This document shows, one piece after another, positions 725 through 27,297 of a stretch of DNA of 64,000 nucleotides; position 1 is the stretch's first letter; every line of letters starts with the position of its first letter. The stretch spans positions 1 through 64,000 of IMG/VR virus record IMGVR_UViG_3300017605_000880, one strand, 5' to 3'. This DNA comes from a virus. Both the position numbers and the translations under genes were made by a program. The notes below the pieces were generated by a model. The model was given only the letters and a program-made list of their open reading frames with translations, did not search any database and was not told the origin of the DNA.

Positions 725-1079
725 CCCCATCCAGCTCGGCCGCGATCTGCCCGTAGCGGCGTTCGTACACCTCGACCAGCGGTTCGGCCTTCTCCTGCTC
801 CCACCACTGCACGAGCGTGGCCAGCCAAACGTCGAACACGCCACGCTCAATGAATGTGGCCTGCAGGATCTGTTGGGGCAGGCCGCGCAGCGGATCCGGG
901 TGGCGCAATATGGTGACGCCGACCTTGCCGTCCTCCATGATCGAGATGCCGACCCGCTTGATCCCCGGCTCAGTGCCGAACCTGCCCATCGAGGCGTAGG
1001 TCACCGGGAACCCGTCGATCCTCCCGTCGAACAGACCATCGACGTGGTCTACGCGCAGCGGATCCGGTTCACGAGCCAC
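702..1079 (-). CDS. Hypothetical protein, about 125 aa
   Basis: GTG start overlapping the last 11 bases of the RDF-like gene; upstream in-frame codons are the antisense shadow of that gene. The protein contains a VGISIMEDGKVGVTILRHPDP segment-type beta hairpin, followed by a helical, tryptophan-containing half ending in an acidic tail. No catalytic motif is visible and I do not recognise it. Tight overlap on both sides puts it in the leftward operon. Confidence 0.7.
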   Translation of the reverse strand: MAREPDPLRVDHVDGLFDGRIDGFPVTYASMGRFGTEPGIKRVGISIMEDGKVGVTILRHPDPLRGLPQQILQATFIERGVFDVWLATLVQWWEQEKAEPLVEVYERRYGQIAAELDGDDGGSDR

Positions 1080-2301
1080 GGCGCGACCCCAACCAAGGCA
1101 GGAACCCCTCAAGCTCGGCGGCGGTTGCCCGCGCCAACTCGCCGGGCTGCCCGCGCCACTCGCCGTACAACTCCCGCAGCTTCGACATAGACCACTGCCG
1201 GGCGCCGGCCAGCGTCGCGACCTGGTTCCACAGCGCCATACGGTCGGGGGATGGTGAACTCGACGGTGCGGGTGAGGAGGTCGACGAACTGGTTGATCCC
1301 TGTCCGGCAGTACCGGCAGGGGCATCGGCGTTGCCCGACGGCGGCGGGTCGGCGAGCGAGGCCCGGCGGGATTGCCACGCCTGCCGCAGCGCGTCCACCT
1401 GTTCCTGTTCCAGCTTGCCGATGTTGTCCTGGATGTGGCCGCTGATCTGCTTGAGCTTGTCCAGTGTGTTCGCCTGGGCGATCCCACGCCACAAGCTGTT
1501 GAAGTCCCATGTGTCCTCGGTGGGGGTTGCGGTGGCGGGCAGTGCGAGCGGTTGCGGGCCGGGCTCGAGCGCGGGGGCGGGGCGGGCCTCCAGTGCCGGT
1601 GCGGCGGGTGCGCCGAGCAGTGCTACCGCCGGGGTCATGTCGATGTGTAGGACCGGGACCATGAACCGGGAGATCATCGTCTTATCGGCGTTGCGCGGGT
1701 CCGGGACCTCCGCTTGGCGTTCCTCCATCTCCAACCGGGCCGGGATGTGACGGCCCAACGCGGTCAGCAGATCCACCGCGCCGGGCAGTTCGGCAGCCGC
1801 GTTGTACCCGTGCGACTCCAGACGCCACACACCCATCCCAGGGGTGTCGGCCAGCATCAGAGACACCCGGGTGGTCGGTTTGCACCCGGCTTGTTTCTTG
1901 GCCGCCGGGTCCGGGCCGCAGACACACAGCTGGTCCTCCAACAACTCCCGCAGCCCGTCGCACCGGCGGGAACACCGGCCGTTGGTCCACTGCTCGTAGT
2001 ATTGGCTGCAGGCGTTCGGGGGGACGATGACCTGCAGGCTGGTTTTGTCGATCACCACCTGGTGCTGCTGGGCGCCGTGGTCGGGTTGCCACGGTTCCGG
2101 TTCGCCGCCGTACACCAACGCGACCTGCTGGATCAACGTCTCAGACCGGGAGGTCAGGCGGAACCGGTCGAGTTTGACCGGCTCCTTATATTCTTTGCCG
2201 GCGCGGCTGGTTTTCGGTCGGCTGGTGCCGAGCCGGATCCGGCCGACTTCGACCTGCCGTGCCTGCACGTCGGCCAGGCGGCGGGGGATCGGGATGGTCA
2301 T
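1069..2301 (-). CDS. Recombination directionality factor-like protein (phiC31 gp3-like family)
   Basis: 410 residues. The first 200 match the gp3-like family: VGRIRLG near residue 19, LDRFRLT near 44, VYGGEPEPWQP near 63, six cysteines between 98 and 140 that look like a metal site, KPTTRVSLML near 141, then GVWRLESHGYNAA and IPARLEMEERQ. In phiC31-type phages gp3 binds the serine integrase and turns it to excision. Many family members occur in phages without that role proven and may serve DNA metabolism. The C-terminal half is proline/alanine-rich linker plus helices and shares nothing I recognise. No integrase lies in the window, so the RDF role here is not established. Starts with an ATGA overlap to the upstream small gene. 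Confidence 0.8.
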   Translation of the reverse strand: MTIPIPRRLADVQARQVEVGRIRLGTSRPKTSRAGKEYKEPVKLDRFRLTSRSETLIQQVALVYGGEPEPWQPDHGAQQHQVVIDKTSLQVIVPPNACSQYYEQWTNGRCSRRCDGLRELLEDQLCVCGPDPAAKKQAGCKPTTRVSLMLADTPGMGVWRLESHGYNAAAELPGAVDLLTALGRHIPARLEMEERQAEVPDPRNADKTMISRFMVPVLHIDMTPAVALLGAPAAPALEARPAPALEPGPQPLALPATATPTEDTWDFNSLWRGIAQANTLDKLKQISGHIQDNIGKLEQEQVDALRQAWQSRRASLADPPPSGNADAPAGTAGQGSTSSSTSSPAPSSSPSPDRMALWNQVATLAGARQWSMSKLRELYGEWRGQPGELARATAAELEGFLPWLGSRRGS

Positions 2302-2456
2302 GACGGGTCCCTGTCGTTGCAGCGGTTGACGTAGCAGTAACAATCGGTCCAGTTGCCGGTAGGTGGCCGGGTGCATTCGCCGCCGCAGGGCAGTTGTGAG
2401 TTCAGCGGCAGGCTCTGCACGGTGGAAACCAAGACGTGCATCATCTGGTCAGCCAT
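2298..2456 (-). CDS. Small cysteine-containing protein, 52 aa
   Basis: Begins MADQMMHVLV after an AGAGGAC ribosome site, and its TGA overlaps the ATG of the RDF-like gene, which supports translation. Four cysteines in the second half (CGGEC, then CYC and RC) suggest a small metal-binding knuckle. It sits between the exonuclease and the RDF-like gene. Function unknown. Confidence 0.6.
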   Translation of the reverse strand: MADQMMHVLVSTVQSLPLNSQLPCGGECTRPPTGNWTDCYCYVNRCNDRDPS

Positions 2457-5307: not shown

Positions 5308-5546
5308 TCCAGGAGCTTAGCGCCGTCGAACGGGCCGCGTTGCAGATCGTGGTCAACGGCGCCACCACCGCCGTCGAGGTGTTCCAAGAAGGACCCGCTA
5401 AAGCCGCCGACGGGACCCCCGTCGACCAAGCCACCTGCCGGCAGATCGCGCTGCTCGCCGCGAACCTCACCCACGCCATCGCCCAATACCCGCACGTCCT
5501 GCTCGAACTCGCCACCGACGATAGTGGTACGGGTCTCGTGGTATGA
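5304..5546 (+). CDS. Hypothetical helical protein, 80 aa
   Basis: Starts MIQELSAVERAALQ at an ATGA overlap and ends at another ATGA overlap with the homing-endonuclease gene. Predicted to be mainly alpha-helical with one central cysteine (TCRQIALLAANL). The family is not recognised. The gene is kept because both junctions are typical coupled junctions and codon use fits. Confidence 0.65.
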   Translation: MIQELSAVERAALQIVVNGATTAVEVFQEGPAKAADGTPVDQATCRQIALLAANLTHAIAQYPHVLLELATDDSGTGLVV

Positions 5547-6052
5547 TCCGTACTGTGTTGGATACCACCGCCGCCTGGCTGGCTGCCCTGATCGACGGGG
5601 AAGGTTCGGTTATGCTCAACCGTCGAACCTACTCCGGCAACAGCCCTGCCACCCGACAACCGAGCGGCCCCATCTATCGACCGGTCGTCGTAGTCGCAAG
5701 CACCACCGACTACCGCCTGATGGACGCCATCCGCGAGAAACTCACCTGCGGACAGGTCTATCAGCACCGCGCGGGCGGCGACGCTCGGGCACCACGCAAA
5801 CGCAGCCAATGGACCTACCGGCTCAACGTCGGGCAGATCCGCGAAGCGCTGCCACCCATACGGCCATGGCTGGTCTTGAAAGGCGAACAGGCAGACCTGC
5901 TCGCCGAAGCCATGGAGATCAAACAGCAGATCACCCCCGGACAGCCGGGGTTCCTGCTGGTCAACCGTCCGGCGCTCAAACAACGCCTGGACGCCATCTA
6001 TCTGGAGATCCGCGCGCTGAACACGCGCGGCAGGGAGGTGATGCCCACATGA
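5543..6052 (+). CDS. LAGLIDADG-type homing endonuclease
   Basis: 169 residues. WLAALIDGEGSV at residues 12-23 is a good LAGLIDADG motif; only one copy is present, so a homodimer is expected. Further features fit the fold: VVASTTDYRLMDAIREKL, then SQWTYRLNVGQI (the typical beta-strand before the second half) and a Gln/Lys-rich helix. These enzymes make site-specific breaks and spread their own gene. It is free-standing (no intron or intein visible) and joined by ATGA overlaps to the gene before and to the start of the purZ-like gene after, so it may have entered next to the start of that gene. Confidence 0.8.
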   Translation: MIRTVLDTTAAWLAALIDGEGSVMLNRRTYSGNSPATRQPSGPIYRPVVVVASTTDYRLMDAIREKLTCGQVYQHRAGGDARAPRKRSQWTYRLNVGQIREALPPIRPWLVLKGEQADLLAEAMEIKQQITPGQPGFLLVNRPALKQRLDAIYLEIRALNTRGREVMPT

Positions 6053-7105
6053 CGTACGGAACTCTGCAGGTTATCGCAGGAGGACAGTACGGCTCCTTAT
6101 GCCGAGGCTAAAGGAGCAGTCGCCGGCTACCTGGCGGCCGAGCAGCAGCACATGCTCGCAATCCGGGTCGCCGGGCCGAACGCCGGACATTCGGTCGTGC
6201 ACCCCAGCAGCGGCAAAAAGTACGCCCTGCGGCAGATCCCGGTTGCTGCCGTCACCAACCCCGGCGCTTTGCTGTGCATCGCCGCCGGGTCGGAGATCGA
6301 CCCGTACGTGCTGCATGAAGAAATCGCCTGGCTCGAGAAAGACGGTGTCAGCGTCAAGGATCGACTGTTGATCGACCCGGCCGCGACCTGGCTCACCCAG
6401 GACCACAAAGACCGCGAGACCACCGCCGGGCTGGTCGGGCGGATCGGGTCCACCGGGAAAGGAATCGGCGCCGCCCGCGCCGCCCGGATCATGCGCGAAG
6501 CCCGCACCGTCGGACAGCACCGGCCCGAGTTCGAACAGTACGGGCATGTCGGGTCGGTCGCGGCTGCCGCCCGGTCCGCGCTGCGCGACGGCACTACGGT
6601 CCAGATCGAAGGGACACAAGGGTACGGGTTGGGGTTGCACGGGCAGCACTACCCGCAGTGCACCTCCTCCGATTGCACCGCGTTGGATTTCCTGCAGATG
6701 GCGCAGGTCAACCCGTGGGAAGCCGGCCAGCTGCAGGTGTGGCTGGTGTTCCGGCCCTACCCGATCCGGGTCGCCGGCAACTCCGGGTACCTGTACGGCG
6801 AGACCAGCTGGGAGGCGCTCGGGCTCGAGCCGGAGATGACCACCGTCACTAAGAAGACCCGCCGGGTCGGGTTGTGGGACGGCGGGCTCGCGCACGCTGC
6901 GGTGCAGGCCAACGGCGGGCCGCGTGCCGTGTGGCCGGTCCTGACCATGGCCGACCAGATCGACCCCGCCCTGGCTGGGGCGACCGATCCTGATGCGGTG
7001 TTCGGTTCGGATCTGCTCGGGCAGTTCCTGAAGATCTTCGAAGCCGATGTCGGGCTCGAACCGTGCATGGTCACCACCTCCGACCGTACCTGTGTGAGGC
7101 TGTGA
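6049..7105 (+). CDS. purZ: PurZ-like adenylosuccinate synthetase with +1 frame shift near its start
   Basis: The body (from about 6104) carries the synthetase motifs: GPNAGHSVV, IGSTGKGIGAARAARIMREA, IEGTQGYGLGLHG, YPQCTSSDCTALDFL and IRVAGNSGYLYGETSWE. PurA joins IMP to aspartate; phage PurZ uses dGMP instead to make the precursor of 2-amino-dAMP (base Z). The true N-terminus is MTYGTLQVIAGGQYGS from the ATG at 6049, coupled by ATGA to the endonuclease gene. It is in another frame and would stop at 6109-6111. Ser follows GGQYG where PurA has the catalytic Asp, the change expected in PurZ. A +1 shift between 6097 and 6103 restores one product of about 351 residues; removing 7 bases instead would give the simpler G-S-E-A-K-G loop. 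The only in-frame ATG downstream (6152) would lose the P-loop. So either programmed frameshifting, a recent mutation or a sequence error. Confidence 0.85.
6094..6104 (+). other. Frame junction inside the purZ P-loop
   Basis: Reading TCC TTA TGC C then GAG GCT AAA GGA joins the frame of the first 16 codons to the frame of the body. TTA is a rare leucine codon in high-GC actinobacteria, so a slow A-site could promote a +1 slip. Equally, 7 extra bases relative to the expected P-loop would explain it. No further damage is visible in the following 330 codons. Confidence 0.7.
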
Positions 7106-7686
7106 TGGACCGGGTGCTCCAAGCGGTGACCGACGGGCGTGAACAGCGCATCGCCGACTACCGCGAATCCGGCGGACGTTGCCCCGCCTGCCTGCAGCAG
7201 ATCCCGCTGCGAGTGTCCGGCGCGCCCGACATTATCGGGACCTTCCGGAAACACCGCGACGCCGGGCGTTGGTGTGAAGGCGGCGGGAAGGCACCCAACC
7301 CGTTCACCGTCGCCGAGAAAGCCCGAAAGATCGCCGAACACCTGTCAACCCCAGAGCAGGACCTCGCCGACTGGTGGCGGCAGCGGTGCGAAGGCGAGAT
7401 CGATATGGTGGTCGCGAAAGCCATCGAATATGGCGCGACCGACCTGCGCGACCTCGGCCGGCAGATCATGGACATGGCCGGACGGCTCGACCCGGAAGGC
7501 CCGCCTCTCCCAGACGGGTACCTCACCGAGGTCGGGATCGTGTTCTACGCCCAAGGGAAACTCGCCCGGATCGTCGCCGCGATCAAAGAAGGCCGACGTC
7601 CCTCGGCCGACTCGTGGCTGGACCTCGGTGTGTACGCCCGGATGGCCCAACGGGTCCACGACCGAGGCGGCTGGCCCGGTGTCTAG
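7105..7686 (+). CDS. MazG-like nucleotide pyrophosphohydrolase (MazZ candidate)
   Basis: 193 residues, joined to purZ by a TGATG junction. The N-terminal 60 residues hold CPAC...FRKHRDAGRWCEGGG, a small zinc-finger-like domain common in front of phage enzymes. The helical C-terminal domain (EGEIDMVVAKAIEYGATDLRDLG, then TEVGIVFYAQGKLARIVAAIKEGRRPSADSWLDLGVYARMAQRV) is of the phage MazG-like type. In Z-DNA phages MazZ trims (d)GTP to (d)GMP, the PurZ substrate; position directly after purZ supports the same role here. The classical EExxE signature is not obvious, so activity is a family inference. Confidence 0.7.
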   Translation: MDRVLQAVTDGREQRIADYRESGGRCPACLQQIPLRVSGAPDIIGTFRKHRDAGRWCEGGGKAPNPFTVAEKARKIAEHLSTPEQDLADWWRQRCEGEIDMVVAKAIEYGATDLRDLGRQIMDMAGRLDPEGPPLPDGYLTEVGIVFYAQGKLARIVAAIKEGRRPSADSWLDLGVYARMAQRVHDRGGWPGV

Positions 7687-7762
7687 CCGGCCCCTGCTCC
7701 GCCTGGCCCCCGCCTGCATCTACTGGGCGTGGTTCATCCTGACCTACTGCGCCGGCAGCTGA
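7679..7762 (+). CDS. 27-residue membrane peptide
   Basis: GTG start inside the end of the MazG-like gene, stop 2 bases before the next ATG. The peptide (MSSRPLLRLAPACIYWAWF...) is a single hydrophobic segment with two cysteines. The exact fit between its neighbours favours real translation, but such a short frame could be chance. Confidence 0.45.
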   Translation: MSSRPLLRLAPACIYWAWFILTYCAGS

Positions 7763-7764
7763 CC

Positions 7765-8103
7765 ATGCCCACCCGGATATCCACCGCAGACGAGCACTAC
7801 TGGGAACAGCAAGCCCGACACCTGGTCGGCTGTGACATCTGCCCCGCCCCGGTCGACCAACCATGCCAATACCCGACCAGCGGAGTCGAAGCCTCGGTGT
7901 GCTGCCACACCGGCCGGATGATCGCCGCCGTCAACCACCCCGACTGGGCCGGAAGGAAACCCAAATGGCTGCCGGTGAATCGATGCGCGACTGGCTCGCC
8001 CCCCAATCCCGACGAGCCGACTGCCCCGAACCCGACTGCAACATGTGGGCCGGACACCAAGGGTTGCACTCCATCGCCCCACCCCACCGCCGCCGTTCCG
8101 TAG
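7765..8103 (+). CDS. Small zinc-finger-like protein
   Basis: Conserved-looking part is the first 65 residues: CDICPAPVDQPCQYP, then CCHTGRMIAAVNHPDWAGRK, a Cys/Cys/Cys/His pattern seen in short phage zinc proteins. The last 40 residues (proline/threonine-rich) overlap the next gene in another frame and look like spill-over with no stop. No ribosome site is obvious; coupling to the preceding peptide is possible. Function unknown. Confidence 0.6.
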   Translation: MPTRISTADEHYWEQQARHLVGCDICPAPVDQPCQYPTSGVEASVCCHTGRMIAAVNHPDWAGRKPKWLPVNRCATGSPPNPDEPTAPNPTATCGPDTKGCTPSPHPTAAVP

Positions 8104-8258
8104 CGTTGTGGGCCGTCACCATCGCCACCCTCGCCATCGGGTTGGCGATGCTGGTCGGCGCTGCGTGGCTCGACCTGAAAACCGCCCAGCTTGCCGGCTT
8201 CGGGATGCTGCTGGCCCAACTCGCCATACTCGCTATCAACGAGATGAGGAAACACTGA
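7965..8258 (+). CDS. Membrane protein, two TM segments
   Basis: 97 residues from an ATG with GGAAGGAAA upstream; an ATG six codons later is possible. The N-terminal 40 residues contain CPEPDCNMWAGHQGLH, a small Cys/His site; two hydrophobic helices follow (about 44-64 and 70-90). It overlaps the end of the zinc-finger-like gene for 139 bases in a different frame and ends in a TGATG junction with the dUTPase fusion. Function unknown. Confidence 0.65.
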   Translation: MAAGESMRDWLAPQSRRADCPEPDCNMWAGHQGLHSIAPPHRRRSVALWAVTIATLAIGLAMLVGAAWLDLKTAQLAGFGMLLAQLAILAINEMRKH

Positions 8259-9211
8259 TGGGCACACCCTGGGGCGACCAACCCCCACTCGTGTACTTCG
8301 CCGAACCGATCGACAAAGCCCACGGGCAGAACTTCGCCATCGCCGCCGCCATGCACGGCGCACTAACCACCTGGGGCTGCACCACCTACCGCCCCAGCGC
8401 AGCCTGGAAAGCCACCCACCTGGACTGGCGGGTTGAACATCTCAACCGGCAAGCCCTGCGCCTGGCCGACCTGATCGTTGCCTACCTCGACGAGCACACC
8501 CCATCGATCGGGGTCCCCGCCGAGATCGAAGCCGCCACCGCCCAGAAAATCCCCGCCATCGTCCACTACACCGGCCAGTCGTTCGCCCTGGCCAGCAACC
8601 CGCTGGTCACTGTCATCCGAGACACCGCTGACCTGGTCGCAGCGGTGATGCGGGCGTTGAAAGACCACCCCCGACCCGACCGGGCCGCCGACCACCACCT
8701 GGCCCGGACCCTCGCAGCAGGCGGTTCGGTCAGCCTCGGCACCATCACCCCCACCACAGCTACCGCCCTGGTCGCCCAGATCAACGGCCCCGAACCGATC
8801 CGGCTGGTCGTCACCGACGGCGCCACCCCGCCTGTGCGGGTCTACGCCGACGACGCCGGGATCGACCTCACCACCGCCGCCGAGGTGACTATCAGCCCTG
8901 GGCAGTACATCGACGTCCCCACCCAGGTCGAAGCCACCCAACTCCCGGACGGGTACTGGGGGTTGATCACCGGCCGCTCGAGCGCCCTACGGAAATGGCG
9001 CCTGCACATCCCGAACGCGGTCATCGACCCCGGCTGGCGCGGCCCGCTGTTCGTCGGGGTGTGGAACCTCGGCGGGAACCCCGTCACCGTCAAAGCCGGC
9101 GACCGGCTCGGACAGCTGATCCTCATCCCCAACCACCCCGCCCCGATCGAGGTCGTCGCAGCGGTTGAGGACCACCCCCGGGGTTTGAAAGGTTTCGGCT
9201 CGAGCGGATGA
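8258..9211 (+). CDS. Nucleoside deoxyribosyltransferase-like / dUTPase fusion
   Basis: 317 residues with two enzymes. Residues 10-110 resemble nucleoside 2-deoxyribosyltransferases/nucleotide hydrolases: VYFAEPID, LNRQALRLADLIVAYLD, then IGVPAEIEAA with the likely catalytic Glu89, and IPAIVHY. Residues 180-317 contain all five dUTPase motifs: DDAGIDL, GLITGRSSALRKW, NAVIDPGWRG, GDRLGQL and RGLKGFGSSG. dUTPase removes dUTP and supplies dUMP. The front domain could cleave or swap a base on a deoxynucleotide, so the protein may clean the nucleotide pool. Its operon neighbours (PurZ-, MazG-, PurB-like) make a role in base-Z metabolism conceivable, but the substrate is unknown. Confidence 0.85.
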   Translation: MGTPWGDQPPLVYFAEPIDKAHGQNFAIAAAMHGALTTWGCTTYRPSAAWKATHLDWRVEHLNRQALRLADLIVAYLDEHTPSIGVPAEIEAATAQKIPAIVHYTGQSFALASNPLVTVIRDTADLVAAVMRALKDHPRPDRAADHHLARTLAAGGSVSLGTITPTTATALVAQINGPEPIRLVVTDGATPPVRVYADDAGIDLTTAAEVTISPGQYIDVPTQVEATQLPDGYWGLITGRSSALRKWRLHIPNAVIDPGWRGPLFVGVWNLGGNPVTVKAGDRLGQLILIPNHPAPIEVVAAVEDHPRGLKGFGSSG

Positions 9212-9651
9212 AACCGAACCACCAATGCCGGGTCTGCGGGCGGTGGCTCGAAGGCGAATGGAACCGGACCACCGACCCAGACCTGCAGGCCGCCCTACAG
9301 CGGCAGATGGACCAAGGCCACTGCGACAGCTGCACACCAGACCCCGAACGACCCCACCAATGGCGACCTACCCGGCTCGGCATCACCCGCATCCTGCAGA
9401 CCGAACGGCTATCCATCCACCGCGTCAACTACCTGTGGTGGTGCGCCTGGTGCGGCCGGCAGACCAGACAACCCGACTACCCCGGCGGGATGTGCAACCA
9501 ACACCGGCTCGCAGAGATCACCGGCCGGACCTACACCGCCGACACCAAACCCCCACTCCCAGGAAGGCCACCCAACCGGACATGGCACCCGACTACCACT
9601 GCGTGTACTGCCGCCCCCAACCCCACGCACGATTCCACAACGGCACATTGA
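9208..9651 (+). CDS. Zinc-ribbon protein
   Basis: 147 residues from an ATGA overlap with the fusion gene. It shows CRVCGRWLEG, CDSC, then WWCAWCGRQ and CNQHR: four Cys pairs or Cys/His sites, enough for two zinc ribbons. The last 25 residues run out of frame with the next gene and are probably spill-over. Likely nucleic-acid binding by analogy; no specific role is visible. Confidence 0.65.
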   Translation: MKPNHQCRVCGRWLEGEWNRTTDPDLQAALQRQMDQGHCDSCTPDPERPHQWRPTRLGITRILQTERLSIHRVNYLWWCAWCGRQTRQPDYPGGMCNQHRLAEITGRTYTADTKPPLPGRPPNRTWHPTTTACTAAPNPTHDSTTAH

Positions 9652-9872
9652 TCGAAATCGTTCTGCACCACCTCGGACGGCGCTGCCACGGCGACATCAC
9701 CCGGCTCACACCCACCGAATGGGACAGTTACGCACCCGCCCACGTGGATACAGAGCTGCGCCAGAAATGGGTCCAGAACTGGCAACGCGAACATGCACCC
9801 GCCACTGCGACAGCCCGACCGGACCGGCCCCGACCTGCCGGGACCGTCCGACGGCCCACCCCCCGCCGGTAG
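9582..9872 (+). CDS. Small Cys/His protein with basic C-terminus
   Basis: 96 residues beginning MAPDYHCVYCRPQPHARFH, followed by a helical region and a Pro/Arg-rich tail. CVYC plus later His and Cys could hold zinc. AGGAAGG lies about 14 bases upstream. It overlaps the preceding gene by 70 bases in another frame. Last gene before the 181-base gap that precedes the primase. Function unknown. Confidence 0.6.
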   Translation: MAPDYHCVYCRPQPHARFHNGTLIEIVLHHLGRRCHGDITRLTPTEWDSYAPAHVDTELRQKWVQNWQREHAPATATARPDRPRPAGTVRRPTPRR

Positions 9873-9876
9873 GGTG

Positions 9877-9903
9877 TTGTCCCGCCAGAACCAGCGGTAC
9901 GAT
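9877..9903 (+). promoter_or_regulatory. Possible promoter for the primase/purB unit
   Basis: TTGTCC (9877-9882) and TACGAT (9898-9903) lie 15 bases apart, a short spacer, at the start of the 181-base gap. Transcription from here would carry the hairpin at 9931 in its leader. Weak evidence. Confidence 0.3.
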
Positions 9904-9930
9904 AGACGATCCGCGCCCGCAGACAGGAGC

Positions 9931-9960
9931 GGGGGGCTGCGCCGCCACGCGCAACCCCCC
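9931..9960 (+). promoter_or_regulatory. Strong GC hairpin in the leader of the primase gene
   Basis: GGGGGGCTGCGC pairs with GCGCAACCCCCC: 12 positions with one mismatch around a 6-base loop. No T-run follows. It could terminate or slow upstream transcription, or control the primase transcript. The remaining sequence up to 10053 shows only the GGGGGG ribosome site. Confidence 0.5.
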
Positions 9961-10053
9961 ACCTACCGTCACCGGACCCGCAAGAACCACCTGGATCAAT
10001 CCTAGCACAACCGGCCCCCGACGGCCGCCAACCACCAACAAGAGGGGGGACGA

Positions 10054-12237
10054 GTGGAACGTACCCCGCTGCAGGTCGTGCTCGACGCCATCACCACCCG
10101 CACCGGGACCGGGCAGCTGCAGAACGGCCAGTGGCGGTTGCACTGCCCCGCCCACCCAGACCGGAACTCCAGCCTCGGCCTCGGCGAATCCCCAGCCGGA
10201 CACGCCCTGCTGTACTGCCAAGCCGGCTGCCGCACCGAAGACGTCCTCGCATCGGTCGACCTGCAGATGCGCGACCTGTACCCCATCCCGGTCAGCGACC
10301 GTCGTGACGACCCGATCGTCGCCACCTACCCCTACGTTGACGAGACCGGGCAGCTACTGTTCCAAGTGCTACGGACCGCGAACAAACGGTTCATGCAACG
10401 CCGCCCCGACCCCGACCACCACGGCAAATGGATCTACAAACTCGACGAGGTCCGACGGGTCCTGTACCGCCTCCCAGCTGTGCTGCAAGCCATCCGCGAA
10501 GGCCAAACCATCTACCTGGTGGAGGGCGAGAAAGACGTCCACACCGTCGAGTTGGACGGCGGTGTCGGGACTTGCAACCCCGGCGGCGCCGGGAAATGGC
10601 GACCCGAATATACCGAACAGCTACGCGGCGCCCACCTCGTCATCGTCGCCGACATCGACCCCACCGGGGTCGGGATGCGCCACGCCCGGACCCTACACCA
10701 ACAGCTACAACCAGTAGCAGCCAGCCTGTTGTTGACCCAGCCCGCTGCCGGGAAAGACACCACCGACCACCGGCTCGCCGGGCACCAACTGGACGAACTG
10801 ACCATCGTCGACCCTAACCCCCCAACCCCCAGCTTGCAGGCCGTCCCGCTGCCCCCGGAGGCCATCGACGGGCCAGCCGAGCCGGTATCACCCGCCACCA
10901 TTGATATGGGGAGAGCGAGGATCCGGTTGACCCCCGCCAGCGCATTCACCATCAAACCCGTCCGGTGGGTGTGGGACGGGCGGATGCCGCTCGGCGAGAT
11001 CTGCCTCATCGCCGGCCGCGAAGGCGTCGGCAAAAGCACATTCCTAGCCTGGCTCACCGCCGCCATCACAAACGGTAACCTCCCCGGGGTGTACGAAGGC
11101 GAACCCCGGGCCGTCCTGTATTCAGCATCGGAAGACGCCTGGAGTTACACCATCGCCCCCCGGATGGTCGCCGCCGGAGCCAACCTCGACCTGGTCTACC
11201 GGATCGACACACTCGACGACGACGGCACCCCCGGGAAGTTGATCCTCCCACGCGACAGCCGGTACCTGCCGGAGATCGCCGAAGAAACCAAAGCCGCCGC
11301 ACTCATGTGCGACCCCATCCTCAGCCTCGTCGACGGAAGGATCAACCCCAACCAAGCCCAAGAACTCCGGTCCGCACTCGAACCGTTGAAACACGCCGCC
11401 GAAACCGCCGGGATCGTCGTCCCCGCACTGGTGCACTTCAACAAAACCCGCGACGTCGACATCCTATCGATGATCGCCGGGTCGAGATCCTGGTCCGAAG
11501 TCGCCCGCGCCGCACTCGCCATCGCCGAGGACAAAGAAGCCGAAGAATACACCTGTGTCGTCTCCCAAGGCAAGAACAACCTCGGCCGGAGAAACCTCCC
11601 CAACCTGCTGTACACCATCGACGACGTAGCGTTGGAGACCGAGGACGGACCACCCGCCAGGGTCGGGCGGCTGCGCTGGACCGGCGAGACCGAACTGGAG
11701 GCGGAGGAGGTCCTCCAACGGAAACCGGCCAGCCAAGCCAACCGCGACAACGTCAACCGGACCCAGGCGGCGATCCTGGACTGGCTGGACGAACAAGGCC
11801 GCGCCTGCAGCCCCCGCGAGGTCGCTGACGGACTCCCGGACGTCCTGAACTACGAGAACGCGAAGAAAACCCTCGCCCGGTTGGCGTCACGCGGCGTGAT
11901 CCAACGCGTAGGGACAGGCTTGTATCGCACTGAACCCGCTGTCCCTGCCGCCGGAGCCGGGTCAACGGCCGCGCGCACGCGCGACCCCCTCGGAAACCTG
12001 TCCCTGTCCCCCTCCCAAGTCAGGGGGGGTAAAAGGGAGGGACAGGGACAGCAGGGACAAGGGACAGGGACAGGGACGGAGGGGGCAGGGGGGTTGTCCC
12101 TCGAGGTGGTAAGGAGCTGTTCGGTCTGCTACGGACCGTTAACCCCAGTAGAGCCAGGGCAAACCACCCACCCCACCTGCCAACCCGAGACGCCCGGTGA
12201 TACGCTGGGTGCCACGGAAGGAGACACCGCCACATGA
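10054..12237 (+). CDS. Primase-helicase (zinc-finger, TOPRIM, RecA-like ATPase)
   Basis: 727 residues from a GTG with a G-rich ribosome site. Residues 25-60 hold C-P-A-H...C-x3-C, the CHC2-type zinc site of primases. Residues about 145-220 form a TOPRIM domain (YLVEGEKDV, then VIVADIDPTGVG). A RecA/RepA-type ATPase follows with Walker A IAGREGVGKST (about 319-329), LMCDPILSLVDG as Walker B, and PALVHFNK. After 560 come a winged-helix-like stretch, a low-complexity Gly/Thr/Gln linker, and a final CSVCYGPL...C zinc motif. It should prime and unwind DNA at the phage fork. It shares an ATGA overlap with the lyase gene, tying replication to the purine pathway. Confidence 0.85.
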   Translation: MERTPLQVVLDAITTRTGTGQLQNGQWRLHCPAHPDRNSSLGLGESPAGHALLYCQAGCRTEDVLASVDLQMRDLYPIPVSDRRDDPIVATYPYVDETGQLLFQVLRTANKRFMQRRPDPDHHGKWIYKLDEVRRVLYRLPAVLQAIREGQTIYLVEGEKDVHTVELDGGVGTCNPGGAGKWRPEYTEQLRGAHLVIVADIDPTGVGMRHARTLHQQLQPVAASLLLTQPAAGKDTTDHRLAGHQLDELTIVDPNPPTPSLQAVPLPPEAIDGPAEPVSPATIDMGRARIRLTPASAFTIKPVRWVWDGRMPLGEICLIAGREGVGKSTFLAWLTAAITNGNLPGVYEGEPRAVLYSASEDAWSYTIAPRMVAAGANLDLVYRIDTLDDDGTPGKLILPRDSRYLPEIAEETKAAALMCDPILSLVDGRINPNQAQELRSALEPLKHAAETAGIVVPALVHFNKTRDVDILSMIAGSRSWSEVARAALAIAEDKEAEEYTCVVSQGKNNLGRRNLPNLLYTIDDVALETEDGPPARVGRLRWTGETELEAEEVLQRKPASQANRDNVNRTQAAILDWLDEQGRACSPREVADGLPDVLNYENAKKTLARLASRGVIQRVGTGLYRTEPAVPAAGAGSTAARTRDPLGNLSLSPSQVRGGKREGQGQQGQGTGTGTEGAGGLSLEVVRSCSVCYGPLTPVEPGQTTHPTCQPETPGDTLGATEGDTAT

Positions 12238-13676
12238 GCCGACGCACCCCCACCCCAGACATCGACCGCATCTGGACCACCACCTGGACCACACACCTGT
12301 GGCACCAACAATGGCTCGCCCACCTGCACACCCAAACCCGAGCCAACCCCAACCACCCAGGACACGACCACCTCGACCACTACCACCAAGCCGCCCAGGC
12401 TTACACCGACAACCCCACCCCATGGTTGATCGAACAACAACACCAAGAACAGATCACCCGACACGACCTGCAAGCCGCACTCGACGTGTTCAACCGGCAC
12501 GCCGGACACGACACCGCCCACTACGGACTCACCAGCCACGACATCACCGACCCCACCACCCAGATCCAGATCCGAGACAGCGCCAACCACATCCTGCGCC
12601 AGATCACCGAACTCGCCCACCAACTCGGACAACAAGCCCGAACCTGGCGCCTGCAACCGCTGCTCGCCCGCACCCACGGCCAACCCGCCCAGGTCACCAG
12701 CTACGGACACCGGATCGCCACCACCATCACCCCGCTGCTCGCGGCCGGGGCCCGGCTCGAGGCCGCGATCCAGAACTACGACTTCCGCCCGCCGCACGGC
12801 GCGGTCGGCACCTCTGCTGACCTGAACCGCGTCCTACACGGGTGGGCCAGCAGCGGGGACGCCCCGACGACGGCCTCGGAGGGGTCTCCGAGCGCCTCGG
12901 AGCCCCCGACGGGTATTTCGGGCCCCCCTCGGGCTTCGGAGGCCGCCGGAAAGGCTTCCGAAGCCGTCGACCTGTACGGCGTTTTGATCGCCAAAGCCGC
13001 CGGGTTCCTGTTCGTGATGCCCACCACCCGTCAGATCTACCACCGCAGCTACGACCTGCCGATCGCGTCGGCGATGGTGGAGGTCGCGGCGGTCGCCCAG
13101 ACCTGGGCCACCGACCGGCGTCTGGAGGCGATGCTCGGGTTGGGCAACGAAACCCGCGACCCGGGGCAGGTCGGCTCGTCTGCGATGGCACATAAGACCA
13201 ACCCTGTCTTGTGCGAGCGGATCTGCAGCCTGGCGTCGGTTACGCGGAGTCACTACACCGGGTTGGCGGAGATCGCGGGGCAGGGTTGGCTCGAGGGGGA
13301 TGTGTCGACCTCTGCAGCCCGTCGGTTGTTGCTGCCGCAACTGTTCTCGAATGTCTCGGCGATCCTGATCAACTGGCGGGACGCGGCCGACCGGTGGGAG
13401 CCGGATTGTAAGCGGCTATCCCAGGAGTTGGGGTTATACGCCCAGGAGGTGTCGACGGGTGCGTTGCTGCACTATCTGGTCGAGTCTGGGGTGCCACGGT
13501 CGGAGGCTCACGAGAAGCTGCGCGGGGGGGTGTTGGGGGTCCTGGCCGAGGCGGACGACGACCGTCACGAGCAGTTAGTGGAGGTGATGGTGGATGCGTC
13601 TCGGATCCCGGCGCAGGCGTTGATTGAGGTCGATGTAATTGTGGAGGCAACGGCCCCCCTCGGCCCGTCCAGTTGA
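12234..13676 (+). CDS. purB: Adenylosuccinate lyase-like protein with low-complexity insert
   Basis: 480 residues of the fumarase/aspartase superfamily: TSHDITD (100-106), ARTHGQPAQ (145-153, with the catalytic His), and the family signature QVGSSAMAHKTNP (312-324). PurB removes fumarate from adenylosuccinate. In base-Z synthesis the same reaction turns the PurZ product into 2-amino-dAMP, a step usually left to the host enzyme. Here the phage carries its own. Residues about 203-246 are an insert rich in Ser, Glu, Pro and Ala, placed between GTSADLNRVLHG and YGVLIAKAAG. Codon use changes part-way: the first third is very C-rich, the rest more G-rich. Starts at ATGA with the primase gene. Confidence 0.88.
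   Translation: MSRRTPTPDIDRIWTTTWTTHLWHQQWLAHLHTQTRANPNHPGHDHLDHYHQAAQAYTDNPTPWLIEQQHQEQITRHDLQAALDVFNRHAGHDTAHYGLTSHDITDPTTQIQIRDSANHILRQITELAHQLGQQARTWRLQPLLARTHGQPAQVTSYGHRIATTITPLLAAGARLEAAIQNYDFRPPHGAVGTSADLNRVLHGWASSGDAPTTASEGSPSASEPPTGISGPPRASEAAGKASEAVDLYGVLIAKAAGFLFVMPTTRQIYHRSYDLPIASAMVEVAAVAQTWATDRRLEAMLGLGNETRDPGQVGSSAMAHKTNPVLCERICSLASVTRSHYTGLAEIAGQGWLEGDVSTSAARRLLLPQLFSNVSAILINWRDAADRWEPDCKRLSQELGLYAQEVSTGALLHYLVESGVPRSEAHEKLRGGVLGVLAEADDDRHEQLVEVMVDASRIPAQALIEVDVIVEATAPLGPSS
12840..12971 (+). repeat. Structured, repeat-rich insert within purB
   Basis: This 44-codon stretch is full of short direct and inverted copies of CTCGGAG/CTTCGGAGG. CGGCCTC at 12871 pairs with GAGGCCG near 12939-12945, so the DNA or RNA can fold on itself. 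It is absent from the usual lyase fold at this place. It resembles a small palindromic insertion kept in frame. Confidence 0.5.
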
Positions 13677-14201: not shown

Positions 14202-14384
14202 ATGCCAGCTGATGTCTTCGCCCGAGTCCGGGTCACCCGAGTATTCAACCTCGAAGAACAACTCCGCGACCAAGTCCAAACCCTGCAAGGCCAACTCCAA
14301 ACCCTGCAAGGCCAACTCCAGACCCTGCAGGGTCAGGTCCAGAACCTGAACCAACGAGTCACCGCTCTGGAGAACGCACCGTGA
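14202..14384 (+). CDS. 60-residue coiled-coil protein with heptad repeats
   Basis: MPADVFARVRVTRVFNLEEQ followed by three near-identical seven-residue units of type TLQGQLQ and a fourth degenerate one, a perfect leucine-zipper pattern. No ribosome site; a TAAGCT -10-like hexamer ends 7 bases before the ATG, so it may be leaderless. Probably oligomerises. Function unknown. Confidence 0.65.
   Translation: MPADVFARVRVTRVFNLEEQLRDQVQTLQGQLQTLQGQLQTLQGQVQNLNQRVTALENAP
14271..14333 (+). repeat. Three tandem 21-bp units inside a coiled-coil gene
   Basis: Units at 14271-14291, 14292-14312 and 14313-14333 share CAA(G/C)TCCA(A/G)ACCCTGCA; a fourth diverged unit follows. Each encodes one heptad. Copy number may vary by slippage. 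Confidence 0.8.
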
Positions 14385-20763: not shown

Positions 20764-21518
20764 TCGCCGGGAGCCGTCATCTGGACACCCATCGGGTGCA
20801 CAAACCGAACGGGCGGTGGTCCGACGAGCGGGCCGCCGCCCACCGGGAGATCCTGGACAGGGTGTGGGCGGAGAAGGCCACCCGGGTGCCGAACCAACAC
20901 CGCGCGGTGATGACCGGCGGGTTGATGGGCGCTGGGAAGACCACCGTCCTGGCCGGACACCCGGAGATTGACATGTCCGACTACCTGATGGTGTCGGCCG
21001 ACGATATGAAAGAGGAGATCATCCGCCACGGTCTGGTCCCGCAGATCCCGGGCGCGGAGCACCTGTCGCCGATGGAGCTGTCGGCGATGTACCACGTCGA
21101 ATCGGCCTACTTGGCGGATGCACTGGCAGAGCGGGCGTACGCCGAGGGGAAGAACGTGATCCTCGACGCGTCGATGGGCGACCGGACTGCGCCTGCAGCG
21201 CGGCTGGCTCGGCTGCGCGATATGGGCTACCAGGTCCGGGGGGTGTTCGTCGACATCCCGGTCGAGACGAGCCTGGAGCGGGCGTCGGCCCGGTACCGCT
21301 CGGGGATGCAGCAGTGGGGCAGCGGGGCGGGTCCCGGCGGGCGGACGATCCCTCCGGCGTTGATCGAGGGGCAACGCGGCCCGGGTGGAATGACCAAGAA
21401 CCGGGTCGTGTTCGACCAGCTGCGCGAGGAGGGTCTGTTCGGGGCGGGGTGGGAGGTGCACGACAACACCGGGTCGGCGCCGGTCCTACTGAAACGCGGA
21501 GGGGGAATACAGACGTGA
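20598..21518 (+). CDS. P-loop (zeta-toxin-like) kinase with N-terminal HPR tag
   Basis: 306 residues. The N-terminus WNPRLHPRDRIGQFTDTPGS is the tag shared with many head-module proteins downstream. TGGLMGAGKTTVL (about 106-118) is a Walker A; DMSDYLMVSADDMKEEI and NVILDASMGDR fit the zeta-toxin/kinase fold, with a later Arg-rich lid (LERASARYRSG). Zeta enzymes phosphorylate UDP-N-acetylglucosamine; related phage kinases have other substrates. It likely acts in the host cell, and if the tag means packaging it would arrive with the DNA. The palindrome that controls the next gene overlaps its stop. Confidence 0.75.
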   Translation: MHPHVWNPRLHPRDRIGQFTDTPGSGSWLSRAAEQARRGFTDAELAQREQDVNDLIAGSRHLDTHRVHKPNGRWSDERAAAHREILDRVWAEKATRVPNQHRAVMTGGLMGAGKTTVLAGHPEIDMSDYLMVSADDMKEEIIRHGLVPQIPGAEHLSPMELSAMYHVESAYLADALAERAYAEGKNVILDASMGDRTAPAARLARLRDMGYQVRGVFVDIPVETSLERASARYRSGMQQWGSGAGPGGRTIPPALIEGQRGPGGMTKNRVVFDQLREEGLFGAGWEVHDNTGSAPVLLKRGGGIQT

Positions 21519-21540
21519 CACGGGGTGTTGCACTTAGAGA
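21515..21540 (+). promoter_or_regulatory. 19-bp palindrome operator (site B)
   Basis: GTGACACGGGGTGTTGCAC (21515-21533) has the same 7-5-7 layout. TTAGAG follows directly as a weak -10; AGAAGGAG and the ATG of the next gene come right after. The TGA of the kinase gene lies inside the site. Confidence 0.45.
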
Positions 21541-21551
21541 AGGAGTGTCGC

Positions 21552-21818
21552 ATGGGCAGCAGCAGGACGGTGCAGCAACTGGTCGAGGACCTCGCATCTG
21601 GCAGGATCAACCTGGACCTGGCGGTGAGGGATTTTGGGACCCGCCGCTGGCCCGGCCCCGCCCCCGAGACCGCGCAGCAACGCCACGGGGTGCACGACGC
21701 GGACCTGCCCGACCCGAACAGTATCGATTGGGTGCAGATGCACCCCGGGCTGTCGGAGCAGCAACGCCGCGCGCTGCTGCGCGTGTACGACCAACGCACG
21801 TCCCGCTCTGGGCGCTGA
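21552..21818 (+). CDS. Small hypothetical protein, 88 aa
   Basis: ATG with AGAAGGAG upstream, directly behind a palindrome site. RTVQQLVEDLASGRINLDLAVRDF and HPGLSEQQRRALLRVY suggest a small helical fold. Similar short proteins occur in actinophages near head genes, without known function. Confidence 0.6.
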   Translation: MGSSRTVQQLVEDLASGRINLDLAVRDFGTRRWPGPAPETAQQRHGVHDADLPDPNSIDWVQMHPGLSEQQRRALLRVYDQRTSRSGR

Positions 21819-21844
21819 TCGCGGTCCGCGAGCTGTGCTTCGCG

Positions 21845-22012
21845 GTGATGGTCGCCTCGTGCGGGTGGCTGGCGGTGTACGCGGTTTGGCCGTGGTCCCC
21901 GTTGCCGGCGCTGTTGGTGTTGTGGCTGGGGTCGCAGCTGGTGCCGTGGTTCCGCCAGCTGTCCCACCCCCGCCCCCGAGTTGCACACCGGGTGTCACCT
22001 GTGGTACAATAG
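21845..22012 (+). CDS. Possible small membrane protein
   Basis: Hydrophobic frame: MMVASCGWLAVYAVWPWSPL, LVLWLGSQLVPWF, then a basic end that runs through the operator and -10 at 21980-22010. No ribosome site is convincing, and GTG 21845 or ATG 21848 are both possible. It could be a real two-helix membrane protein or only chance. Confidence 0.4.
   Translation: MMVASCGWLAVYAVWPWSPLPALLVLWLGSQLVPWFRQLSHPRPRVAHRVSPVVQ
21980..22010 (+). promoter_or_regulatory. Promoter with 19-bp palindrome operator (site C)
   Basis: GTTGCACACCGGGTGTCAC (21980-21998) contains -35 TTGCAC (21981-21986); TACAAT (22005-22010) follows after an 18-base spacer. Nearly the same as site D 530 bases on. The operator covers the whole -35 and spacer, so a bound protein should block transcription. 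Confidence 0.7.
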
Positions 22013-22046
22013 TGGGGCAAGGGACAACTACAGAGAGGACCCTGCG

Positions 22047-22433
22047 ATGAATGACAGCATCACCACCGCGACCGACGCGGAGGACGAGGCCACCATCGCC
22101 CAGGCCCACCAGGACCTGAGTGAGACCCTCGCCGCCGAGGACGCGGACTGGGACGCCAGGCAGGCCGCCCCCGACGCCACCTCGCCCGAGTACCGGGCAG
22201 GCTGGGCCACCGAGGACGCCCGCCAGCGGGGCGAGGACGGCGCCGCCGCCCCCGCCGACGAGATGAGCGCCTTCACCGGCCGGCTCGCCGACTGGCTGCG
22301 CAGCCAGCCCGACGTCGCTGAGGTGGACGTGGTCGCCGACGGCGGCAACGACAGCCAGGCTCTCAGCACGATCCTCGGGTTCAGCCTCGCCGGTGTCGGC
22401 GGGGTCAGCCTGGGGATGAACCCCACCCCGTGA
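22047..22433 (+). CDS. Acidic hypothetical protein under its own promoter
   Basis: 128 residues, strongly acidic (DAEDEATIAQAHQDLSETL, AEDADWDARQ), with a C-terminal segment LADWLRSQPDVAEVDVVADGG and a Gly-rich end. GAGAGGAC precedes the ATG. It has its own operator-promoter and its own terminator, the build of an independently expressed accessory gene. Not recognised. Confidence 0.65.
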   Translation: MNDSITTATDAEDEATIAQAHQDLSETLAAEDADWDARQAAPDATSPEYRAGWATEDARQRGEDGAAAPADEMSAFTGRLADWLRSQPDVAEVDVVADGGNDSQALSTILGFSLAGVGGVSLGMNPTP

Positions 22434-22455
22434 CCTTGTTCCCTCTCTGATGGGC

Positions 22456-22490
22456 CCGGCCCCCCGGCGCGACGACGCCCGGGGGGCCGG
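22456..22490 (+). terminator. Strong hairpin terminator
   Basis: CCGGCCCCCCGG and CCGGGGGGCCGG form a perfect 12-bp stem around an 11-base loop, 22 bases after the stop of the preceding gene. No T-run, as is common in GC-rich hosts. Confidence 0.7.
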
Positions 22491-22512
22491 TGCTTGTCCG
22501 GGGCCACGCGCG

Positions 22513-22543
22513 GTTGCACCGAGGGTGTCACCTGTGGTACAAT
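22513..22543 (+). promoter_or_regulatory. Promoter with 19-bp palindrome operator (site D)
   Basis: GTTGCACCGAGGGTGTCAC (22513-22531) with -35 TTGCAC at 22514-22519, an 18-base spacer ending CTGTGG as at site C, and TACAAT (22538-22543). Drives the next short gene, with a leader of about 50 bases. Confidence 0.7.
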
Positions 22544-22602
22544 GGAGGTGTCCGGCCGGACGTCGGCCGGGCGGGTTGACAACTCCAGAGAGGGAGAACA
22601 GG

Positions 22603-23022
22603 ATGTCGGAGACAGTGGCACAGGGCGTCACCGAACAGGGCCGCGACTGGAAGATCATCCAGGGCGTCAAGCCGGAAAACGGAGGCTACCGCGACCACGT
22701 CTGGCAGGAGTTCGCCGGGCTGGCCATCGAGATGGGCGGCTACAGCGACCTGACTGCCATCGACCCCTACAGCGGGCGCAGGCTCTGGCTGTCCAGCGCG
22801 TTCAAGTGCGACACGCACACGGCGATGCTGAGCGCGGCCAAGCCGGGCGAGGAGGCCATCGAGGTCTACCGGTTGTCGCACGAGTGCGGCGACTGCGGCG
22901 ACTCGGTCTTCGCAGCGCTCCGGCGGCTGGTGGACGCGATGGAGGCCATCGGGTTCCCGGAGGGATTCCGGGACGAGGCCCAGGCTGCCGGGGTCGTCGT
23001 CCCCACGGCCCACGACCGCTGA
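22603..23022 (+). CDS. Hypothetical protein under its own promoter
   Basis: 139 residues after GAGAGGGAG. Contains HVWQEFAGLAIEMGGYSD, FKCDTHTAML and HECGDCGDSVFAALRRLVDAMEAIG; the cysteines (C, then CxxC) may bind metal. A single-gene unit between an operator-promoter and a perfect terminator. Not recognised; the unit structure resembles an accessory (moron-type) gene. Confidence 0.65.
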   Translation: MSETVAQGVTEQGRDWKIIQGVKPENGGYRDHVWQEFAGLAIEMGGYSDLTAIDPYSGRRLWLSSAFKCDTHTAMLSAAKPGEEAIEVYRLSHECGDCGDSVFAALRRLVDAMEAIGFPEGFRDEAQAAGVVVPTAHDR

Positions 23023-23033
23023 CCAACCCAACA

Positions 23034-23064
23034 CGACGCCCCCCGGCAACCCCGGGGGGCGTCG
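23034..23064. terminator. Terminator shared by convergent genes
   Basis: CGACGCCCCCCGG and CCGGGGGGCGTCG make a perfect 13-bp stem with a 5-base loop. It lies between the rightward gene ending at 23022 and the leftward small gene ending at 23067, so it can serve both. Confidence 0.75.
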
Positions 23065-23066
23065 CC

Positions 23067-23216
23067 TTATACCTTGCCGACGTGCTCGATCAACACCGCG
23101 ATCACAAACGAGCAGAACCCGCCCCAACCGAACCGCTCCGGGATGATCCCAAACGCGGCCAGCCCCGACAGGACCGCCGCCAACAGCAGGAACAGCAAAA
23201 CCAACACGGTTGCCAT
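23067..23216 (-). CDS. Leftward 49-residue membrane protein
   Basis: MATVLVLLFLLLAAVLSGLA, then a short loop (PERFGWGG) and a second hydrophobic stretch ending IEHVGKV: two TM helices. It is the only leftward gene in this part and ends right at the terminator. No strong ribosome site. Third-position G/C use fits a coding frame. Role unknown. Confidence 0.55.
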   Translation of the reverse strand: MATVLVLLFLLLAAVLSGLAAFGIIPERFGWGGFCSFVIAVLIEHVGKV

Positions 23217-23263
23217 ACCGGGTGTTTACCCGCCGCGACCCTCGAGCATGCTACGCTCCCCAG

Positions 23264-23539
23264 ATGACTGACAACGTGACACAGCCCGCGCGGCCCGCCC
23301 GGCACTTCTCGGTCGAGGAGAAACTGCGCTGGCTCGAACCCAACCCGAACCTGCCGCCGCACCTGCACGTGATCGCCGCGCAGTTCCAGGCCCTGGCCAT
23401 GGCGTTGCTGCGGCAGGTCGAGGACAGCCCGCAGCTGACCCTCGCGTTGCAGCACCTGATCGACGCCAAAGACTGCGCCGTCCGAGCGAAGATCGCCGAA
23501 CAGCCGCACGTGCTACCCTCGGACCTGGGGTCGCGATGA
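23264..23539 (+). CDS. Small helical protein, possibly Acb2-like (DUF7681-type)
   Basis: 91 residues, leaderless-type start (TACGCT ends 6 bases before the ATG). The pattern EEKLRWLEPNPNLPPHLHVIAAQFQALAMALLRQV, then SPQLTLALQHLIDAKDCAVRA, resembles small hexameric Acb2-type proteins, which sequester cyclic nucleotides and block CBASS-type defence. The conserved end of that family usually reads with Asn/Ala after the alignment block, which is altered here, so the match is tentative. It stands directly before the terminase genes. Confidence 0.5.
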   Translation: MTDNVTQPARPARHFSVEEKLRWLEPNPNLPPHLHVIAAQFQALAMALLRQVEDSPQLTLALQHLIDAKDCAVRAKIAEQPHVLPSDLGSR

Positions 23540-23561
23540 CCCCTGGATAGGGAGAGTCGAG

Positions 23562-25680: not shown

Positions 25681-25686
25681 TACCCT
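25681..25686 (+). promoter_or_regulatory. -10 element of leaderless GNAT gene
   Basis: TACCCT immediately follows the terminase stop codon and ends 6 bases before the GTG at 25693, the same spacing as other leaderless starts here. No clear -35. Confidence 0.35.
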
Positions 25687-25692
25687 CGACAG

Positions 25693-26253: not shown

Positions 26254-26264
26254 GGAGCTGCACC

Positions 26265-27247: not shown

Positions 27248-27297
27248 CCCCGGGCTTCCTGGTATCCTGGTCGTAACCGACAGAGAGGGGGCCGGCG

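What the first reader, a model, noticed from the sequence alone, without database searches (positions are those of the whole stretch)
6049..13676. Candidate 2-aminoadenine (base Z) DNA synthesis operon that includes its own lyase
Seen: a PurZ-like synthetase with Ser in place of the PurA catalytic Asp, a MazG-like hydrolase joined to it by TGATG, and a fumarase-superfamily lyase with the PurB signature further along the same strand. Known: in Z-DNA phages MazZ gives dGMP, PurZ adds aspartate, and PurB (normally the host's) releases fumarate to give 2-amino-dAMP. Inference: this phage encodes all three steps and replaces A by Z in its DNA. No DpoZ-type polymerase or DatZ lies in view, so they may be outside the window or replaced.
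Basis: partly seen in the sequence, partly recalled or inferred. Interest (0 to 1): 0.9.

Follow-up and report, generated by a model that had tools for sequence, protein, structure and literature searches.

The report
Phage Z-DNA gene cluster lacking polymerase
This virus of bacteria carries a known type of gene cluster for making 2-aminoadenine, the letter some phages use instead of A in their DNA, together with its own enzyme for a step the literature assigns to the host; in this particular copy the key gene is broken, and a closely related, apparently complete phage has no recognisable DNA polymerase to build such DNA.

Summary
Corrections: (1) purZ is not one open frame here. A 7-base longer stretch breaks it inside the nucleotide-binding loop, about 50 bases after a window-specific homing-endonuclease gene. 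A relative at 89% identity (L005/G001) has it intact with the diagnostic Ser. (2) The "MazG-like hydrolase" belongs to an unnamed family that follows purZ0 in 77 of 80 viral loci; the MazG fold is only suggested. (3) Phage PurB is not unique: Hiyaavirus and Ghobesvirus have it annotated, and 20 of 34 PurZ0 contigs carry it, yet the papers read assign the step to the host. The window's PurB is of a mycobacterial type, apparently acquired separately. (4) No DNA polymerase (families A, B, C, PrimPol) was found on the 73-kb record or on G001, whose exact 127-base end overlap suggests a closed genome. Of 34 PurZ0 contigs, 22 have PolA and 11 of the other 12 PrimPol; G001 is the exception. Whether the virion contains Z is untested. 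Verdict: a new variant of the known Z cluster.

The parts
5543..6052 (+). Homing-endonuclease-like gene (ALIDGEGS motif) directly upstream of purZ; absent from the relative
   Evidence: PHROG 5046 HNH endonuclease E 4.4e-10; no homologue in L005; its stop overlaps the purZ ATG
6049..6111 (+). purZ0, 5' fragment (MTYGTLQVIAGGQYGS..., catalytic Ser; frame then closes)
   Evidence: intact counterpart in L005
6113..7105 (+). purZ0, remainder in a different frame
   Evidence: PF00709 E 6.4e-29; 7vf6 E 7.8e-83; 89% to L005, dN/dS 0.17
7105..7686 (+). Helical purZ0-partner protein, 193 aa, unnamed family; candidate MazG-like dNTP hydrolase
   Evidence: homologues follow purZ0 in 77 of 80 loci; AF2 core pLDDT 92.4; weak DR2231 MazG fold matches, E 0.7 or worse
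7863..8258 (+). Conserved hypothetical, 131 aa
   Evidence: 71% identity to L005
8258..9211 (+). DmtZ-DutZ fusion (nucleoside deoxyribosyltransferase-like N half, dUTPase-type C half)
   Evidence: PF00692 E 8.9e-23; all five DmtZ residues that were mutated in the Ghobes enzyme (Y6, D12, P57, N77, E103) align; PF05014 E 0.004 among the G001 proteins scanned
9208..9651 (+). Conserved hypothetical with CxxC motifs, 147 aa
   Evidence: 90% identity to L005
10054..12237 (+). TOPRIM-type primase-helicase (zinc finger, TOPRIM, AAA_25)
   Evidence: PF13481 E 1.5e-21; PHROG primase/helicase families
12234..13676 (+). PurB-type adenylosuccinate lyase, ATGA overlap with the helicase stop
   Evidence: 4nle E 5.2e-46; 91% to L005, dN/dS 0.32; 41% to PurB of PurZ0 contig L024; tree

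Best explanation
The locus is a PurZ0-type 2-aminoadenine nucleotide module of a tailed phage. DutZ would hydrolyse dATP and dGTP to monophosphates. DmtZ would destroy dAMP or move its deoxyribose phosphate to a Z base. PurZ0 would add aspartate to dGMP, and the phage PurB would remove fumarate to give dZMP, which host kinases raise to dZTP. The helical protein encoded right after PurZ0 probably helps to supply dGMP. In the lineage represented by the intact relative G001, dZTP would be incorporated by a non-selective polymerase, most likely the host's, because no phage DNA polymerase was found; selectivity would come only from depleting dATP. In the window record purZ0 is frame-broken, so that genome as sequenced could make Z only through the DmtZ transfer route, if at all. 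Shown here: gene identities, key residues, synteny, purifying selection, no recognised polymerase. Inferred: all activities and Z in the DNA.
For: PurZ0 placement: 7vf6 281.9 bits, archaeal PurA 2d7u 141.4, S-2L-type PurZ 7odx 87.7, and the tree. Order maz-like, DmtZ, DutZ on one strand in 64 of 64 loci having all three. DmtZ and DutZ activities were measured in Ghobes and Wayne (PMC12884076). DmtZ residues conserved. PurB signature and PDB kin. PurB in 20 of 34 length-selected PurZ0 contigs. dN/dS 0.17-0.32 for the purZ remainder, DmtZ-DutZ and PurB. Klenow does not discriminate A from Z, and Z appears in DNA made by cellular enzymes (PMC8342488).
Against: purZ is broken in the window record. 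No DpoZ, PrimPol, family B or C polymerase was found, so dedicated Z incorporation is unproven. PurB could serve ordinary purine synthesis. Substrates are untested. G001's completeness rests on an exact end overlap.
Confidence: 0.72

Rival explanations
1. Decaying or vestigial Z cluster: the phage was once a Z phage, has lost its Z polymerase, and in this record also purZ; its DNA is ordinary A-containing DNA.
For: purZ frame break beside a homing endonuclease; no polymerase on either record.
Against: The relative has purZ intact, and purZ, DmtZ-DutZ and PurB are under purifying selection between the two (dN/dS 0.17-0.32).
Confidence: 0.2
2. The purZ frame break is a sequencing or assembly artefact and the virus in nature has an intact gene (compatible with the best explanation; it concerns only this record).
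For: It is a single metagenome-derived record; no other gene with a detectable match showed a split frame against G001 genes, so one isolated break in an otherwise conserved gene is suspicious.
Against: A 7-base length difference is unusual for a short-read error, and it lies about 50 bases from a window-specific inserted gene, so a biological cause is plausible.
Confidence: 0.4
3. PurA/PurB-like auxiliary genes that boost ordinary AMP synthesis.
For: PurB is a normal purine enzyme; some large viral contigs carry both a distant PurA/PurZ match and PurB.
Against: Ser in place of Asp, PurZ0 affinity, and linkage to DmtZ-DutZ, whose characterised relatives act on the Z nucleotide pool.
Confidence: 0.06
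4. The phage encodes a DNA polymerase too divergent for the models used, so it is a normal Z phage with its own polymerase.
For: Many proteins of G001 have no Pfam match, and not all 116 called genes were scanned.
Against: Families A, B, C and PrimPol were searched on whole records with working controls, and Z-phage polymerases gave no tblastn match; the PolA and PrimPol searches succeed in the other PurZ0 contigs.
Confidence: 0.15

Closest known systems
Hiyaavirus (Streptomyces phages Hiyaa, Keanu, Galactica) PurZ0 cluster
   Same: Same gene order: purZ0, helical protein, dUTPase fusion, then a PurB-like lyase 2-3 kb further downstream; similar genome length
   Different: They encode DNA polymerase I, and Galactica a primase/polymerase too; their PurB is only about 27% identical and falls in a different part of the tree
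Gordonia phage Ghobes (PurZ0; DutZ and DmtZ characterised in PMC12884076)
   Same: PurZ0, helical protein, DmtZ, DutZ and an annotated adenylosuccinate lyase
   Different: DmtZ and DutZ are separate genes; DNA polymerase I and primase/polymerase present; PurB distant (23%)
Arthrobacter phages of the Wayne/Beethoven group
   Same: DmtZ-DutZ as one fused protein (PMC12884076)
   Different: DUF5664 instead of the helical family, DNA polymerase I present, no PurB match in the two such contigs searched (G056, G059)
Cyanophage S-2L Z cluster
   Same: No DpoZ; A/Z selectivity comes from the nucleotide pool (PMC8342488)
   Different: S-2L has DatZ, MazZ, PurZ and a PrimPol; no DatZ or PrimPol was found here
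IMG/VR contig 3300043313_001220 (L024/G035)
   Same: PurZ0 module plus the same mycobacterial-type PurB, 41% identity; no PolA
   Different: Has a PrimPol

Membership tests
PurZ0 (2-amino-adenylosuccinate synthetase) | Closest to PurZ0 rather than PurZ or PurA | tested here: met
   7vf6 281.9 bits, archaeal PurA 141.4, PurZ 87.7; on the PurZ0 side of the tree with phiVC8 and SH-Ab PurZ set apart at 99
PurZ0 (2-amino-adenylosuccinate synthetase) | Ser replacing the PurA catalytic Asp in the GxxxGS loop | tested here: met
   GGQYGS in the window 5' fragment and GGQYGSEAKG in L005
PurZ0 (2-amino-adenylosuccinate synthetase) | Intact coding frame | tested here: not met
   Frame broken near 6097-6111 in the window; intact in L005
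PurZ0 (2-amino-adenylosuccinate synthetase) | Uses dGMP and GTP | not testable with these tools
   needs enzyme assay
PurZ0-type Z cluster | DutZ (dUTPase-type dATP/dGTP hydrolase) | tested here: met
   PF00692 E 8.9e-23; alignment A3; activity itself untested
PurZ0-type Z cluster | DmtZ with its key residues | tested here: met
   Y6, D12, P57, N77, E103 equivalents all present (residues from PMC12884076)
PurZ0-type Z cluster | DpoZ (family A polymerase) | tested here: not met
   absent from G000 and G001
MazG/MazZ dGTP hydrolase | Detectable MazG-superfamily profile or fold in the 7105-7686 protein | tested here: inconclusive
   no Pfam or PHROG match; hhalign to single SH-Ab and Beethoven sequences negative; Foldseek DR2231 chains recur but E 0.7 or worse
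PurB adenylosuccinate lyase | Lyase_1 domain, GSSxMxxKxN signature, conserved His of the TH motif | tested here: met
   PF00206 E 1.6e-16; GSSAMAHKTNP and RTHGQ aligned to solved lyases
PurB adenylosuccinate lyase | Cleaves succino-2-amino-dAMP | not testable with these tools
   needs enzyme assay

The most novel reading that the evidence does not exclude
A phage lineage that makes Z-DNA with no DNA polymerase of its own: the host replicative polymerase copies the genome and A is excluded only by emptying the dATP pool (DutZ plus DmtZ) while phage PurZ0 and a separately acquired PurB fill the dZTP pool.
Probability: 0.35. Interest if true: 0.8.

Novelty: new variant of a known kind. Interest (0 to 1): 0.55.

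Why it matters
PMC8342488 raised the idea that host enzymes alone could make Z-DNA, and PMC12884076 links Z genomes to dedicated polymerases. A lineage with the full pool-control module and no recognised polymerase is a natural test of pool-only control. Phage-encoded PurB in more than half of the PurZ0 contigs tested, of at least two PurB types, shows that the lyase step is often not left to the host, unlike the pathway as described in PMC12884076 and PMC12783734. The helical family next to purZ0 in 77 of 80 loci is a clear uncharacterised target.

Tried and rejected
DatZ and DUF5664 in this locus: none by tblastn. PrimPol hidden in the helicase gene: its N-terminus reads as zinc finger plus TOPRIM, and the Prim-Pol HMM is negative. 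A single origin of phage PurB: the quick tree puts window/L005/L024 with mycobacterial-type PurB (99) and other PurZ0-phage PurBs elsewhere, although that all-viral cluster is weak (75) and the careful tree did not finish. MazG membership by profile comparison: negative. Search for PurZ0 in 395 genomes of an actinobacterial class at E 1e-60: nothing, with no positive control, so uninformative. Programmed frameshifting at the purZ break was considered; no familiar slippery or stop context was seen, so it was not pursued. Low-scoring antisense PurB matches inside purZ (40-54 bits) were discounted as spurious.

Full report
OBSERVATION. The window is bases 1-64000 of a 72,977-base viral record. 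On the + strand at 6049-13676 lie a PurZ-like synthetase, a 193-aa ORF joined by TGATG (7103-7107), a dUTPase-containing ORF, a primase-helicase and a PurB-type lyase. The synthetase is not one ORF. The ATG at 6049 reads MTYGTLQVIAGGQYGS and its frame then runs into a stop at 6109-6111, while the rest of the enzyme, 330 aa, is read from about 6113 in another frame. The relative L005 (IMGVR_UViG_3300035092_000015) has an uninterrupted gene beginning MTRGTIQVIAGGQYGSEAKG, and alignment shows 7 more bases in the window in this loop. The window also carries a homing-endonuclease-like gene at 5543-6052 that L005 lacks; window 5514-6066 stands where L005 has only about 35 bases. No other gene with a detectable match showed a split frame against the relative (short terminal pieces would be missed, as for purZ itself). 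The break may be a scar of that insertion or an artefact.

WHAT THE GENES ARE. PurZ remainder: best PDB match 7vf6 at 281.9 bits, then archaeal PurA at 141.4 and a solved PurZ (7odx) at 87.7. 7vf6 is identical in the tree to L040, a 44,938-base record that matches Gordonia phage Archimedes in length. From my own knowledge 7vf6 is the published PurZ0 structure. In the tree the window and L005 sit with PurZ0 proteins, apart from phiVC8 and SH-Ab PurZ (99). The 8258-9211 ORF is a DmtZ-DutZ fusion like that of Arthrobacter phage Wayne: the C half is a dUTPase, and the N half keeps all five residues (Y6, D12, P57, N77, E103 in Ghobes numbering) that PMC12884076 mutated.

The 193-aa protein has no Pfam or PHROG match. 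Homologues stand after purZ0 in 77 of 80 viral loci, whereas DUF5664 was seen in only two. The C-terminal core is a confident four-helix model (pLDDT 92.4) with conserved E, K, D and Y residues. Foldseek against the PDB returns DR2231, a MazG-like pyrophosphohydrolase, many times but with E 0.7 or worse, and weak viral matches include DUF6378 and nucleotide-modification-associated proteins. A dNTP hydrolase is the best guess, not a result.

PurB: the lyase matches adenylosuccinate lyases (4nle, E 5.2e-46) and keeps GSSxMxxKxN and the TH motif. Between window and L005, dN/dS is 0.17 for the purZ remainder, 0.26 for DmtZ-DutZ, 0.21 for the helicase, 0.32 for PurB and 0.55 for the partly alignable helical protein, which indicates purifying selection on the module.

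PURB IN Z PHAGES. The library papers assign this step to the host: PMC12884076 (bacterial host enzymes) and PMC12783734 (bacterial PurB). However, PurB-like genes are already annotated in Hiyaavirus and Ghobes-type Gordonia phages. In 34 PurZ0 contigs taken from the PurZ scan by length, 20 carry a PurB match, one of them weak (my count). Of 32 contigs reached through PurB, 25 have a PurZ/PurA match; the seeds of that scan came from PurZ0 phages, so this second figure is biased. In a quick tree the window's PurB, L005 and L024 group with two PDB lyases, 4nle and 9oo0 (94; wider set 99), which I take from memory to be mycobacterial, while most other PurZ0-phage PurBs fall in a separate, weakly supported all-viral cluster (the careful tree was not finished). 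The window PurB is 41% identical to that of L024, another PurZ0 contig, and about 27% to Hiyaavirus PurB. This suggests at least two acquisitions.

NO POLYMERASE. DNA_pol_A is absent from the record and from G001. DNA_pol_B, DNA_pol3_alpha and Prim-Pol are absent from both. Polymerases of known PurZ0 phages give no tblastn match, and Pfam scans of 68 G001 proteins find none. G001 is collinear with the window record in circular order, and its ends overlap by exactly 127 bases, the pattern of a closed assembly; the window record lacks about 8 kb of it (G001 20,780-28,787). Among the 34 contigs, 22 have DNA_pol_A and 11 of the remaining 12 have Prim-Pol; several contigs are fragments. G001, the window's lineage, is the only one with neither. 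The genome does carry a TOPRIM primase-helicase, a Cas4-like exonuclease, RuvC and two DnaQ/RNase T-like exonucleases. PMC8342488 reports that Klenow does not discriminate A from Z and that Z enters DNA made by cellular enzymes, so replication by the host polymerase under pool control is workable but unproven.

VERDICT. A PurZ0-type Z module is well supported; it is a new variant in lacking a recognised polymerase and in its separately derived PurB. In this record purZ0 is broken. Z in the DNA is untested.

Noticed in passing
window 5543-6052: Homing-endonuclease-like gene inserted directly before purZ, absent from the collinear relative, with the purZ frame break about 50 bases downstream; possible homing scar.
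   Followed up: partly
L010:651-1187 and L010:7736-8458 (minus strand): Two DnaQ/RNase T-like 3'-5' exonucleases in the polymerase-less relative G001; one could serve as a proofreading helper for a host polymerase.
   Followed up: no
window 1069-2376 (minus strand): Gp3-like recombination directionality factor family match (PF18897, E 4e-39), hinting at a temperate ancestry; no integrase was noticed.
   Followed up: no
L009:11552-12382 (minus strand), homologous to the window/L003 boundary near 64000: Sub-threshold SAVED-domain match (E 0.00055), a sensor domain known from CBASS defence.
   Followed up: no
G001, proteins of alignment A6: Three proteins with weak PI3/PI4-kinase matches and one Zeta-toxin/AAA_33 protein.
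   Followed up: no
L021-L100: Among the PurZ0 contigs lacking PolA, 11 have PrimPol instead, so the S-2L-like situation (PrimPol without DpoZ) looks commoner than the 2021 statement that only S-2L lacks PolA; several contigs are fragments.
   Followed up: partly
window 12850-12970: Low-complexity ASE-rich insert in the PurB between the GAVGTSAD motif and the C-terminal half, partly absent from L024 PurB.
   Followed up: no
window 14270-14329: Three tandem copies of a 21-base unit (94% matches) downstream of PurB.
   Followed up: no
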